NCBI GenBank assembly: GCA_020348985.1
Contig: CP070761.1
Span: forward strand, 497,850-561,849
DNA length: 64,000 nucleotides
From: Candidatus Thorarchaeota archaeon
GTDB lineage: Archaea; Asgardarchaeota; Thorarchaeia; Thorarchaeales; Thorarchaeaceae
Direction: 5' to 3'
In this document: piece after piece, positions 36,081 through 42,857 of the stretch
Layout: each line of letters opens with the position of its first letter
How positions within the stretch are numbered: the stretch's first letter is position 1
Position numbers and translations under genes: made by a program
The notes under the pieces: model-generated
Databases searched by the model: none
What the model was told of the DNA's origin: nothing
Seen by the model: the letters and a program-made list of their open reading frames with translations, nothing else

Positions 36081-36521
36081 CTAGGTTTTCGTGTACCTAG
36101 GAACATTGCTGCGGAACCATTCAGGCACTATTGCATTGTCAACTCTGTCTGAAGTAGGCATGTACGGTTTGATGTCAACAATTGGAGTGCCATCAAAGGC
36201 GTCAATCTGATCAATTCTGATTTCTCTCGTTTTGTCATTCAGACTTTCAATTCCCACAATCGAATGTCCAATAGGTGTCGGCCTGGCCGGACTCCTGCTA
36301 GCGAAAACGCCGGAGAGCTCGGCTGACTCTTGAGGTGGATAGTCTCTGAGGTTAGACCGGTCCTCAGGATTGTCGCGCTCAGTAATCCACCACAACACAA
36401 TGATATGAGAGAACTTGTCCAACTGAAGAACGCCATCCCAAAATTCCGGCTTGATCACCAATACTGGTTTGCGGTCATCAGGCTTCTCTACTTGACCAAT
36501 AACCGACGCTAACAAGTCCAT
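36081..36521 (-). CDS. trmO: TrmO-family tRNA (t6A37) methyltransferase
   Basis: The protein has 146 residues of the UPF0066/TsaA (YaeB) family. Hallmarks are GVFASRSPARPTPIGHSIV and AFDGTPIVDIKPYMPTSD. Enzymes of this family use SAM to N6-methylate t6A at position 37 of certain tRNAs decoding ACN and others. The protein covers the conserved beta-barrel domain and is shorter than bacterial TrmO, which has a C-terminal extension. The ATG start is clear. No partner gene is adjacent. Confidence 0.88.
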   Translation of the reverse strand: MDLLASVIGQVEKPDDRKPVLVIKPEFWDGVLQLDKFSHIIVLWWITERDNPEDRSNLRDYPPQESAELSGVFASRSPARPTPIGHSIVGIESLNDKTREIRIDQIDAFDGTPIVDIKPYMPTSDRVDNAIVPEWFRSNVPRYTKT

Positions 36522-37226: not shown

Positions 37227-38951
37227 CTAGCCTCCAGCAAACATTATCAATCTCATTAGACTGTCTCTGAGATCATCTTCAGTGACGAAACCTGTTAGCT
37301 CATCCGCACCCATTTGTATCGTTGGCAATGCGGGCAAATCGTCTTCTGAAATCTCGGCTTCTGGGTCATCAATATTCACCAGGTCGATGACGGACCGAGG
37401 AATACCTAGCTCATCAAGAACAGACAGAAGACTATCAAGGACAGGAGTGCAGAAGACGCAGTGGTCCGACTTGTAAAAGACTATCGAAGGAATGTCGAGT
37501 GCCTCCTTCCACGCTGGAAGGATAATGACAAACTTGCTTCCTTCCTGTGGCTTACCAGCAATTCGGTCCTCAACCCAGATTCTTCCATCGAGATCAGACA
37601 CAAAGTGATCGACAACCGCCAATCCCAATCCCCGACCTGCTGCCCGTCTTCCAGTCCAATCGAAAATCAACTCCTTCTGGTCGTCAGATATTCCAGGACC
37701 CCTATCTGAGATCTCGATTCTTATCTTGTCGCCTGACTCTATCGGCTCTGCATTTACGTCGATTTCCACTTCATTGCCTTCGACATAGGACATTGAGTTG
37801 TGGATTATGTTGAAGAAGATATTCCACAGGAAGGCGTGCCCAGCCACTTCGAATGCGTCATCAGCCACATTGCTCTCTGCTTTGAGTGTCTTCCATTCGA
37901 AATCTCTGTCGGCTTCTCTAATCGCCTTCCCAATGTGTGGGTACAAATCGGTCTTACCTCTTGCCGGGGCTTCATGACCTAGACTCATAAGGACCCCCAG
38001 GTTTGCGATCAGCCTGGAGGCCCGTCTTAGATTCCAGGAGGTCTCTTGCATCAATGATGCCTCCCGTTCCGCCATCTTCAGAGAGGTCTTGAGGTCCTCA
38101 AGTGACAGCAGCGTGTTCTGATAGATCAAGTTCAGGTCACTGGTCATGGCCTCCAGATAGAGATTGGCTCTCTCACTCTCTTCTCTGAGTCTCTGTTCCG
38201 CGGCTCGTCTTCTCGTAACATCAAAGGCCATGAGACCAATCTCTTTTGCTCTCTCGGCACCTATGGCCAAAGCCCTGGACGAAATGCTCACCCAAATCAA
38301 TCGTTCATCGGGACGTTTGAATTCAATCTCTAGACCTGTAACACTTTTGCCCCTCAGGACTTCACTAATGATGTCGGCTCCTGGATCATACTCTGAGTTG
38401 GGATCAGGTAGGAAGTCAGCCAGTGTCTTCCCGAGGATTTCTTCGGCGCCACAACCCATGAGCTCCTCAGTAGCTTGGTTCACTTGTTCTATTTCGCCCG
38501 CACGATTCAATGTGATGTAGGCTATTGGTGACATGTCATACAGAGTGGCGAACCTCTTCTCAAGCTCAGTCACCTGCTCCTCGAGAGCTAGCTGTCTCGA
38601 GATGTCCTTCACCGAAGCCAGCACAGCGGGTTCGTCATAATACACGAACTCAGTCGGATTGATTTCAACGTGTATTGTGTCTCCGTTCTTGGACCGAAGT
38701 CGTGTGTTGAATCTCTCTATGTTCTCGCCGGACGCGATTGCATCGAGCATCGCACGGTCATGTCTCCGAGACAGCGTATCCACTAGGTCTTCAAAGGCCA
38801 TGTCCAGTAGCTCTTTCTCTGAGTAGTTCACCATTTCAGCGAATGCAGTATTTGCCAAAACGATGTCTTCATCCTGTAGCAGGATGACGCCTTCGTGAAC
38901 AACATCAAAGACCTTCTCAAGCCAACTAGAGGCATCTGGTTCGCCGGTCAT
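37227..38951 (-). CDS. PAS-PAS histidine-kinase-like protein lacking the H-box His, fused to a thioredoxin-like CxxC domain
   Basis: The protein is 574 residues from the ATG at 38951 (GAGGT 7 bases upstream). PAS domains lie at about 12-122 and 130-250. The dimerisation helix reads LYLEAMTSDLNLIYQN, where related archaeal kinases have MTHDINN, so the phospho-acceptor His is Ser271. The ATP-binding domain looks intact: NIFFNIIHN (N-box), DRGPGISDDQ (G1) and GRGLGLAVVDHF (G2). Residues about 488-574 form a thioredoxin or glutaredoxin-like fold (IVFYKSDHCVFCTPVLDSLL) with C498-V-F-C501 and a cis-Pro segment LPALPTIQMG. There are no membrane helices. It cannot signal by classic His phosphorylation. 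It may be an ATP-dependent redox sensor, or trans-phosphorylate a partner (inference). No response regulator is nearby. Confidence 0.85.
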   Translation of the reverse strand: MTGEPDASSWLEKVFDVVHEGVILLQDEDIVLANTAFAEMVNYSEKELLDMAFEDLVDTLSRRHDRAMLDAIASGENIERFNTRLRSKNGDTIHVEINPTEFVYYDEPAVLASVKDISRQLALEEQVTELEKRFATLYDMSPIAYITLNRAGEIEQVNQATEELMGCGAEEILGKTLADFLPDPNSEYDPGADIISEVLRGKSVTGLEIEFKRPDERLIWVSISSRALAIGAERAKEIGLMAFDVTRRRAAEQRLREESERANLYLEAMTSDLNLIYQNTLLSLEDLKTSLKMAEREASLMQETSWNLRRASRLIANLGVLMSLGHEAPARGKTDLYPHIGKAIREADRDFEWKTLKAESNVADDAFEVAGHAFLWNIFFNIIHNSMSYVEGNEVEIDVNAEPIESGDKIRIEISDRGPGISDDQKELIFDWTGRRAAGRGLGLAVVDHFVSDLDGRIWVEDRIAGKPQEGSKFVIILPAWKEALDIPSIVFYKSDHCVFCTPVLDSLLSVLDELGIPRSVIDLVNIDDPEAEISEDDLPALPTIQMGADELTGFVTEDDLRDSLMRLIMFAGG

Positions 38952-40446: not shown

Positions 40447-42081
40447 CTAGTCTGGCAGGGCCAACCTCTTCGCTCCAACGTATACCATTGATAGTCCCAC
40501 TATCATGAGAACTACACCAGGTCCATAAGCAAGCAGGGCGAGGTTCTCAAACCCGGTCAATAATCCCAGGCCGAGTGCAGACCCGAGGATTGAGACCATT
40601 AGGGTTACCATAATGGCTCCTGTGTTGTCTCTGAAGATCTTGCTTTCACGGTCTTCGTAGTTGGGGTTGTTTGCTGTGACGCCTGTGCTAATCATCACCG
40701 CACCTGAAATAGCCATGCAACAGCCTAGAATTGCACCAATACTTTGAACTAGACCAAATGCCATCATCTTTGAAGCAATAATGGTGTAGATGAAGACAAC
40801 GGGAATCGCCAATAGCAGAGACTGAGCAATTCTGGCCTTCACATATTTGAAGACTCCGTCTGGAGTGCTTTTGATGATCCAAAGATGATTCTTGGACTCC
40901 ATGAATGCTATTCCTCCAAATGTGATGGCACCTACAATAGAGAGCATCATGTTGGAGCTTATGATGAAGTAGAAGAAGACTCTATCCGGGTCAGTCGCTC
41001 CTACTGAGTAGTTGATCATAAGCGGGAAGACGATGGCAAGAATCATTCCAAAACCCAAACTCGTCACGTTCTGAGCTTTCCTCCCGAAATCCTTCAGAGA
41101 TGTTATCACAAGAACGGTGAACGAGCTTGATGAGAGTCTCCTTAGACCTCTTAGAATCAGGTTTTCCCTTCCCGTAGTCACGACTGTCTCTGTACGAGCT
41201 CCAGCTTCGATTCTAAACAACCTATCAGACGTGAATAGAGCTAATCCGATTGTACCCACAAAAGTAGCCATCAACAGAATGAAACTGATAGAAGGTCCAA
41301 AGCCCAACATGGATCCTAGGATTCTGAGATCACTTGCGGACAATCCTACTCCGTTGCACATCACCGCAATCCAAGTTACGAGGTCCGCTCCCCAAGAAGA
41401 TGGCAACCAGTCCATCGAACTGCTTTGCATGACAGCCGCGAATTCAGCTGGTACGAGTTGAACTACGTAAATTGCAAGCAGAATGAGAAGTCCGGTTATT
41501 ACTGAGAAGGCAGTTGCAATGTCCCTTCCTCTTTCAGACCTACCGAGCTTCGACTGAAGTGCTGTTCCCAACAGGAGTGACAGCCAGACGGCGCTGATTG
41601 TCACGAAGAAGATGACTGAATAGATCAGAAGTTGACCGAATATTGAGACTTCATATGCAACAACCAATGGGCCAAGAACAACAGGAGCCGCCACTATTAC
41701 AAACAGACCGTAGACCGGAATCCCTGCCAAGAATGATCCAACCAGAATGTCCCGGGTCTTGACATTGTGACTAAGTAGAATCTCCCATTGACCAATCTTG
41801 ATCTCCTGCAATGCAGCTGAGATCGGACCCAGAAAGAGGATTATCCAAATCATGAGGACCAAAGATCTCATCATTCCTGGGAATAGAAACTTCAGGGCTG
41901 CGGTATACTCAGAACCAAACCAGAGGATCAGCAAAGATGACACAATCCATGGAGCGACTACAATTGCCCACAGAGGGCACACAATCATCAGGACAGTCGC
42001 TACTCTCTTACGGCGATGACGGAACCTTGATGTTATTGCAAGGAATTCAGCTTTTGCGATATGACTCCAGTTGTCTGACAC
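40447..42081 (-). CDS. ABC-2 type exporter permease
   Basis: The protein is 544 residues from the GTG at 42081, with GGAGGG 8 bases upstream and 2 bases after the ATPase stop. It has about twelve membrane helices in two halves, with a cytoplasmic loop containing KIGQWEILLSHNVKTRDILVGS, the coupling-helix region of ABC-2 exporters. It pairs with the ATPase encoded immediately upstream. The cargo is unknown; lipids, peptides or antibiotics are typical of the class. It is under the palindromic operator at 42897. Confidence 0.82.
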   Translation of the reverse strand: MSDNWSHIAKAEFLAITSRFRHRRKRVATVLMIVCPLWAIVVAPWIVSSLLILWFGSEYTAALKFLFPGMMRSLVLMIWIILFLGPISAALQEIKIGQWEILLSHNVKTRDILVGSFLAGIPVYGLFVIVAAPVVLGPLVVAYEVSIFGQLLIYSVIFFVTISAVWLSLLLGTALQSKLGRSERGRDIATAFSVITGLLILLAIYVVQLVPAEFAAVMQSSSMDWLPSSWGADLVTWIAVMCNGVGLSASDLRILGSMLGFGPSISFILLMATFVGTIGLALFTSDRLFRIEAGARTETVVTTGRENLILRGLRRLSSSSFTVLVITSLKDFGRKAQNVTSLGFGMILAIVFPLMINYSVGATDPDRVFFYFIISSNMMLSIVGAITFGGIAFMESKNHLWIIKSTPDGVFKYVKARIAQSLLLAIPVVFIYTIIASKMMAFGLVQSIGAILGCCMAISGAVMISTGVTANNPNYEDRESKIFRDNTGAIMVTLMVSILGSALGLGLLTGFENLALLAYGPGVVLMIVGLSMVYVGAKRLALPD

Positions 42082-42083
42082 CG

Positions 42084-42857
42084 TCAAGCCCTCCAAGCCA
42101 ATAGCTGTTCTCGGTCTACCCTACCACCTACTATTCGCAGATATGCTTCCTCAAGATCAGCGGCGTCAACTGACTCGATGATTTGTTCAGGCGACCCGAC
42201 GGTCATCAATTTGCCTTCACAAATGATTCCAATGACATCACACACTTCTTCTGCGAAGCTAGTCATATGCGTACAGATGAAGAACGAGGTCTCGGTTTCG
42301 TCAGCAAGTACGAGGATTAAGTCTTTGACTAGTGAACTGGCGGATGGATCTAGGCGAGAAGTTGGTTCATCCAAGAAGACAAGTTCAGGTTCGTGAAGCA
42401 GTGTCGAAGCCACCAGAACTTTCTGTTTCATTCCGGATGAATAGGACTCCAAGAGGTCATTCTGTCTTTCCTCTAGCCCGAGCAAGCTCAGAAGACTATC
42501 TATTCTTCTCAGAAGGGAATCCCCGTTTCTTCTGTTCAGCGCCCCGATGAACTCCAAGAACTCCACAGCCGAAAGTTTGGAGTAGATTCCAGGAGACTCT
42601 GGAAGAAGTCCTGTAATCGATTTGACCTGATCTCTTTGAGTTTCTATATCCAGACCGCAAACCCGGGCACACCCACTACTCTGTTTCATGAGCCCTGAGA
42701 GTATTCTGACAGTTGTAGTCTTTCCTGCTCCGTTAGGCCCGAGTAACCCAAATATGCTGCCGATAGGTACTTCCAAGGTAAGACTCCGTATGGCGTGAAT
42801 TGTACCAAAGGTCTTGCCAAGTGTTTCGGTCTGAATAGCTAAGCCGTTCTCGTTCAT
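42084..42857 (-). CDS. ABC exporter ATPase
   Basis: The protein has 257 residues. Walker A is GPNGAGKTTT, the signature is SYSSGMKQKVLVA, Walker B is LVFLDEPTSRLD, and the switch His is in ICTHM. It is of the CcmA/drug-export type (ABC-2). It couples to the permease starting 2 bases downstream of its stop. A GGTGA site precedes the ATG. It is transcribed divergently from the membrane protein/HTH pair at 42968, and the shared promoter contains an ACTTTGC-type palindrome. Confidence 0.9.
   Translation of the reverse strand: MNENGLAIQTETLGKTFGTIHAIRSLTLEVPIGSIFGLLGPNGAGKTTTVRILSGLMKQSSGCARVCGLDIETQRDQVKSITGLLPESPGIYSKLSAVEFLEFIGALNRRNGDSLLRRIDSLLSLLGLEERQNDLLESYSSGMKQKVLVASTLLHEPELVFLDEPTSRLDPSASSLVKDLILVLADETETSFFICTHMTSFAEEVCDVIGIICEGKLMTVGSPEQIIESVDAADLEEAYLRIVGGRVDREQLLAWRA

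What the first reader, a model, noticed from the sequence alone, without database searches (positions are those of the whole stretch)
37227..38951. Kinase-like PAS protein without phospho-His but with a thioredoxin-type CxxC domain
The H-box is MTSDLN instead of MTHDIN, yet the N, G1 and G2 boxes of the ATPase are kept. A C-terminal CVFC thioredoxin-like domain with a cis-Pro segment is fused in frame. This combination suggests an ATP-gated redox switch, or a redox-controlled kinase acting on a residue other than its own His. I know of no described system with this layout.
Basis: partly seen in the sequence, partly recalled or inferred. Interest (0 to 1): 0.75.

Follow-up and report, generated by a model that had tools for sequence, protein, structure and literature searches.

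The report
Redox-tailed kinase lacking its phosphorylation site
In one family of Asgard archaea a sensor kinase carries a thioredoxin-like redox domain at its end, and this gene is a duplicated copy that lost the histidine such kinases phosphorylate yet is still kept intact by selection, so it probably signals through shape and redox chemistry rather than phosphate.

Summary
Window 37227-38951 (-) encodes 574 aa: two PAS domains, a DHp region with MTSDLN in place of MTHDLN, a HATPase_c domain with N, G1 and G2 boxes, and a C-terminal CVFC domain with a Trx-type cis-Pro. It is not a one-off: I aligned 48 proteins with this order, all from one Asgard GTDB family. CxxC and cis-Pro are invariant (48/48). 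Twenty-seven keep the His. The 21 His-less ones form a single clade after one duplication, and the site there drifts (S 12, Q 6, R, N, K), so Ser is not a conserved phospho-acceptor. dN/dS of 0.03-0.18 in close His-less pairs shows the gene is not decaying. Four extra cysteines of the Trx domain are all present (34) or all absent (14, this gene included). His+ copies sit beside a Cd-type P1B ATPase (18/27) and an ArsR/SmtB regulator (14/27); His-less copies never do. A second Asgard family has an apparently independent PAS-Trx-PAS-kinase fusion that also lacks its His. Best reading: a pseudo-histidine kinase signalling by conformation and thiol chemistry. Closest functional parallels are DivL and the thiol redox sensor RdmS. 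Whether the CxxC is input or output is unknown.

The parts
37227..38951 (-). whole gene, 574 aa, PAS-PAS-DHp(no His)-HATPase_c-Trx-like
38601..38900 (-). PAS domain 1 (aa 18-117)
   Evidence: Pfam PF00989
38214..38522 (-). PAS domain 2 (aa 144-246)
   Evidence: Pfam PF13426
37962..38201 (-). DHp-like two-helix region (aa 251-330)
   Evidence: homology to His+ relatives; helices 248-290 and 295-326 in a low-confidence full-length model
38139..38141 (-). Ser271 at the phospho-His position (MTSDLN)
   Evidence: S 12, Q 6, R 1, N 1, K 1 in the His-less clade; H in all 27 sister paralogues
37512..37829 (-). HATPase_c domain (aa 375-480)
   Evidence: Pfam PF02518 E 9e-18
37797..37799 (-). N-box Asn385 (kept here; Y/F/S in 7 relatives)
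37692..37706 (-). G1 box DRGPG (aa 416-420)
37620..37637 (-). G2 box GRGLGL (aa 439-444)
37242..37487 (-). thioredoxin/glutaredoxin-like domain (aa 489-570)
37449..37460 (-). CVFC redox motif (aa 498-501); CxxC invariant in 48/48
37323..37325 (-). cis-Pro543 (LPALPT), invariant in 48/48
   Evidence: cis geometry is inferred from the family
36084..36521 (-). TrmO-like neighbour, near 8 His-less loci; probably synteny only
42087..42857 (-). ABC ATPase upstream on the same strand; 70% identical to the ABC ATPase beside a stand-alone 6-Cys Trx gene in this genome

Best explanation
The gene encodes a pseudo-histidine kinase: a duplicated, non-autophosphorylating member of a family-specific group of cytosolic sensor kinases that all end in a thioredoxin-type domain. 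Two PAS domains sense a ligand or the redox state. The DHp/CA core keeps its dimeric, ATP-binding shape but cannot make phospho-His. The C-terminal CxxC domain cycles between dithiol and disulfide (or makes a mixed disulfide with a partner), and this state is coupled to the conformation of the kinase core. Output is by protein contact, most plausibly on the His-bearing sister kinase present in most of the same genomes, or on the few receiver proteins. Shown: layout, conserved CxxC and cis-Pro, single loss of the His, drift at the site, purifying selection, Trx fold by prediction. Inferred: no autokinase activity, redox cycling, coupling and partner. Confidence about 0.9 for 'no phospho-His signalling of its own' and about 0.5 for the full redox-coupled mechanism.
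For: His absent in all 21 members of a clade with 100/96 support, nested among 27 His+ copies. Site drifts S/Q/R/N/K. N-box Asn lost in 7 members and G1 or G2 degraded in a few, so strict kinase chemistry is not under selection in parts of the clade. CxxC and cis-Pro 48/48. dN/dS 0.03-0.18 in every domain that could be estimated in close His-less pairs, comparable to His+ pairs from the same genomes. Trx fold. Every other kinase-like protein I checked in this genome keeps a His: the sister copy plus eight more. Recurrence in Asgard family f23: PAS-Trx(CVYC)-PAS-DHp with T/S replacing the His of SHELRTPL in 9/9, ATPase boxes kept where the sequence reaches. Of 21 genomes with a His-less copy, 17 also hold the His+ copy; in seven genomes the two lie about 16-22 kb apart on one contig.
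Against: No biochemistry. The His+ copy is near universal in the family, so co-occurrence is no more than expected by chance. N, G1 and G2 boxes are kept in the window protein itself, so phosphorylation of another protein is not excluded. The full-length AlphaFold2 model is unusable (pLDDT 38.5), so nothing shows that the Trx domain touches the kinase core.
Confidence: 0.55

Rival explanations
1. It is still a kinase: ATP is bound and the phosphate goes to another protein or to a non-His residue, under control of the CxxC.
For: N, G1 and G2 boxes intact in the window protein; [quoted passage not shown]
Against: Site residue not conserved (S/Q/R/N/K), N-box Asn lost in 7 of 21 relatives. The reported RdmS autophosphorylation was later revised as unspecific.
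Confidence: 0.2
2. The kinase core controls the Trx domain: PAS and ATP state gate a disulfide reductase or isomerase, so the redox domain is the catalytic output in place of a receiver.
For: C-terminal position after the CA domain, where hybrid kinases carry output modules; CxxC and cis-Pro invariant while the phospho-acceptor is gone; the same Trx-type module is fused to several other regulators in Asgards.
Against: In f23 the Trx lies between PAS domains, an input-like place. No reductase or obvious substrate gene is conserved beside the His-less copies.
Confidence: 0.2
3. The Trx-tailed family are metal/thiol-stress sensors and the window copy is a metal-blind derivative that tunes the His+ sensor. 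(Overlaps with the best explanation; it names the signal.)
For: His+ copies lie beside a Cd-family P1B ATPase (18/27) and an ArsR/SmtB metalloregulator (14/27), both over NCBIfam cut-offs in the members tested; His-less 0/21; Fisher P 7e-7 and 5e-5. Four extra Cys are all-or-none.
Against: Loci are related by descent, so the P values overstate. Q and K copies keep the four Cys but lack the His and the linked ATPase. This genome itself has no close copy of that ATPase.
Confidence: 0.3
4. A decaying pseudogene-like copy or an assembly artefact.
For: Loss of a catalytic residue after duplication.
Against: Intact in 21 genomes, dN/dS far below 1 in all domains.
Confidence: 0.02

Closest known systems
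RdmS / MsmS (Methanosarcina acetivorans, MA_type 2 kinases)
   Same: Archaeal multi-domain sensor-kinase-like proteins without an H-box; [quoted passage not shown] ATP bound and hydrolysed, no autokinase (PMC11784639, PMC6944256).
   Different: No Trx domain reported in the passages read; not compared by sequence here.
DivL (Caulobacter)
   Same: PAS-bearing pseudo-histidine kinase with the His replaced (Tyr550), no kinase or phosphatase activity, proposed to act allosterically on CckA (PMC4211667).
   Different: No Trx domain; different lineage.
KKK40347.1 (Lokiarchaeum)
   Same: Asgard kinase reported to lack the catalytic His (PMC10343646).
   Different: About 39 kDa; listed matches are BaeS/HATPase-type only, no Trx.
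MJ0307-family archaeal thioredoxin (TIGR00411; PDB 1fo5)
   Same: Fold, CxxC and cis-Pro of the tail; best PDB match and commonest NCBIfam match of the family.
   Different: Free-standing small proteins; here fused, and ancestrally with four extra Cys.
SasA (cyanobacterial clock kinase; from memory)
   Same: Histidine kinase carrying a Trx-fold domain.
   Different: N-terminal KaiB-like domain without CxxC; His kept. Recalled, not tested.

Membership tests
Histidine kinase (DHp/HATPase_c two-component sensor) | HATPase_c with N, G1 and G2 boxes | tested here: met
Histidine kinase (DHp/HATPase_c two-component sensor) | Phospho-accepting His in the DHp helix | tested here: not met
   Ser271; His absent in all 21 clade members
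Histidine kinase (DHp/HATPase_c two-component sensor) | Cognate receiver protein encoded with it | tested here: not met
   No receiver gene in the window neighbourhood examined; one stand-alone receiver found in the 86%-complete genome, far away
Pseudo-histidine kinase | HK scaffold with the His lost but the gene under purifying selection | tested here: met
Pseudo-histidine kinase | No autophosphorylation, allosteric function | not testable with these tools
   needs purified protein
Thioredoxin/glutaredoxin-like superfamily | Trx fold, CxxC at the start of helix 1, cis-Pro opposite | tested here: met
Thioredoxin/glutaredoxin-like superfamily | Thiol-disulfide oxidoreductase activity | not testable with these tools
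   needs an assay
MJ0307 thioredoxin family TIGR00411 | Score over the curated cut-off (92.75 bits) | tested here: not met
   Window domain has no hit; best of 30 family members only E 3e-5
RdmS/MsmS MA_type 2 kinases | H-box absent, thiol redox sensing, sequence kinship | tested here: inconclusive
   H-box His absent; no Methanosarcina sequence compared

The most novel reading that the evidence does not exclude
A class of signalling protein in which a histidine-kinase core no longer transfers phosphate but, driven by PAS ligands and ATP binding, switches an attached thioredoxin-type domain on and off, so that the output is disulfide exchange on target proteins. It would have arisen at least twice in Asgard archaea.
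Probability: 0.2. Interest if true: 0.88.

Novelty: new variant of a known kind. Interest (0 to 1): 0.62.

Why it matters
Pseudo-histidine kinases and thioredoxins are both known, but I found no description of one fused to the other. Here the fusion is fixed across an Asgard family, exists as matched His-bearing and His-less paralogues in the same genomes, and recurs in another family that also lacks the His. That gives a natural experiment on what a kinase scaffold does once phosphotransfer is gone, and suggests that Asgards, the archaeal relatives of eukaryotes, use a plug-in redox module on kinases, V4R proteins and Ras-like GTPases.

Tried and rejected
Ser271 as a substitute phospho-acceptor: rejected, not conserved. 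Pseudogene or artefact: rejected. A conserved operon for the His-less copies: not found; only TrmO recurs (8 loci) plus lineage-local sets. Homology of the window ABC permease (40450-42096) with the permease beside His+ copies: not supported, E 0.06. Full-length AlphaFold2 with two sequences: pLDDT 38.5, discarded. The genome-contig scan with the single protein found only one relative. Papers on HK-thioredoxin fusions: none found. A co-occurrence argument for His-less with His+ copies: 17 of 21, but His+ is so common that this is uninformative.

Full report
Observation. The ORF at window 37227-38951 on the minus strand encodes 574 aa. Pfam finds two PAS domains and HATPase_c, no HisKA and no thioredoxin family. 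The H-box reads MTSDLN (aa 269-274), the N, G1 and G2 boxes are present, and CVFC (498-501) with LPALPT (cis-Pro 543) follows the ATPase.

The host is an Asgard archaeon (Promethearchaeota). The one named relative found, an MAG called Lokiarchaeota, carries a 49% identical orthologue. The genome is one 3.16 Mb contig, 86% complete; window G+C is 47%.

The family. A search of the genome and its relatives gave 48 proteins that I aligned with the same order, all in one GTDB family (f1) and spread over 31 genomes; canonical kinases without the tail serve as outgroup. The first CxxC Cys, the second, and the cis-Pro are each 48/48; the G1 Asp is 48/48; the N-box Asn is 41/48. The residue at the phospho-His position is H 27, S 12, Q 6, R 1, N 1, K 1. 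A maximum-likelihood tree built without that column puts all 21 His-less proteins in one clade (100/96), inside the His+ group; one change of state suffices. So the His was lost once after a duplication and the site then drifted. This argues against Ser as a replacement acceptor. In seven His-less proteins the N-box Asn is also gone (Y 5, F 1, S 1), and a few have damaged G1 or G2 boxes. Yet dN/dS in close His-less pairs is 0.03-0.18 in every domain where it could be estimated, like the His+ copies of the same two genome pairs. The proteins are maintained, not decaying. Of 21 genomes with a His-less copy, 17 also have a His+ copy; in seven genomes the two lie about 16-22 kb apart. The own genome's His+ paralogue reads MTHDMNN (G000:424931-426283); its apparent lack of PAS1 may reflect masked sequence just upstream. 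Eight other kinase-like proteins of this genome also keep a His.

The tail. The 30-sequence profile of the domain (28 fused, 2 stand-alone) matches MJ0307 thioredoxin (1fo5, E 2e-4), other thioredoxins and a glutaredoxin in PDB. The AlphaFold2 model of the window domain (pLDDT 79) shows the Trx arrangement, and Foldseek returns thioredoxins, mycoredoxin and NrdH. The ancestral form has six cysteines: CX4C just before strand 1, the CxxC, one after the cis-Pro strand, one near the C-terminus. The four extra Cys are present together in 34 proteins and absent together in 14, with no intermediate. By Trx topology they should lie at the pole opposite the CxxC, so a four-Cys metal site or two structural disulfides is plausible; this is inference. 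Stand-alone ~110 aa versions occur widely in f1, including genomes where no fused kinase was found (G010, G025, G004, G015). Two are in this genome. Nearly all that I read keep the six-Cys layout.

Context. His+ copies lie next to a heavy-metal P1B ATPase (18/27) and an ArsR/SmtB regulator (14/27). The examples tested exceed the NCBIfam cut-offs for TIGR01512 (cadmium family, 487 against 313.5) and NF033788 (82 against 55). A DsrE-like protein (12/27) and an ABC pair are also common. None of the 21 His-less loci has the ATPase, the ArsR protein or the DsrE-like protein nearby. Some loci are truncated by contig ends and all are related by descent, so the P values (7e-7, 5e-5) overstate the case. 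This genome has no close copy of that ATPase. It holds one receiver domain, a stand-alone REC of about 130 aa, against 14 HATPase_c hits over the cut-off, some of which need not be kinases. Orthodox kinase-regulator pairs are therefore scarce here.

Recurrence. In Asgard family f23, nine genomes carry PAS-Trx(CVYC)-PAS-DHp-HATPase_c proteins of about 660 aa. The DHp reads ELTSTKLLEPL, EVTSTGLLDPL or EITTSNLLEPL where canonical kinases read SHELRTPL, so the His is T or S in all nine; N, G1 and G2 are kept in the eight that reach that far. The Trx is in another place and the kinase halves are only about 23% identical to the window protein, so this is best read as an independent fusion. Related Trx-type domains are fused to V4R proteins and to Ras-like GTPases in other Asgards.

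Mechanism. I favour a pseudo-histidine kinase whose PAS inputs and CxxC redox state set the conformation of an ATP-binding dimer that acts on partners by contact, perhaps on its His+ sister. Precedents: DivL, which lacks kinase and phosphatase activity and is proposed to act allosterically (PMC4211667); the ChrS pseudokinase variant working through the paralogue HrrS, with which native ChrS forms heterodimers (PMC9491836); and RdmS, an H-box-less archaeal thiol redox sensor that binds and hydrolyses ATP without being an autokinase (PMC11784639; PMC6944256). Whether the CxxC is input or output is open.

Novelty. Each element is known and no description of the combination was found in the held open literature; subscription papers were not searchable. 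I rate it a new variant of a known kind, with a less likely but more interesting reading as a phosphate-free, redox-output kinase scaffold.

Noticed in passing
L154:952-2931, L157, L168-L176 (Asgard family f23): PAS-Trx(CVYC)-PAS-DHp-HATPase_c proteins, His replaced by T/S in 9/9: an apparently independent Trx-kinase fusion without phospho-His.
   Followed up: partly
L155:337-1782, L160:301-1782, L161:292-1788, L164:286-1773: N-terminal Trx-type CxxC domain on ~500 aa proteins of several Asgard families; L160 has two V4R matches by Pfam and weak similarity to the methanogen regulator MsvR.
   Followed up: partly
L166:1471-2352, L167:537-1382: Ras-like small GTPase fused to a C-terminal Trx-type domain with CDFC.
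   Followed up: partly
G000:1478211-1478555 (L177): Only one receiver domain found in the genome, a stand-alone REC of about 130 aa, against 14 HATPase_c hits over the cut-off.
   Followed up: partly
L102:8651-8980; window 42087-42857: Stand-alone six-Cys Trx-like gene lies directly downstream of an ABC ATPase that is 70% identical to the ABC ATPase near the window kinase.
   Followed up: partly
L052, L057, L066, L070, L083 and others (18 of 27 His+ loci): Conserved ArsR/SmtB - Cd-family P1B ATPase pair beside the His+ Trx-tailed kinase; possible metal-stress sensor.
   Followed up: partly
L071-L074, L076, L077: The glutamine (MTQDLN) copies sit in a conserved cassette with a MinD-like ATPase and several uncharacterised proteins (read by eye, no family search).
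   Followed up: no
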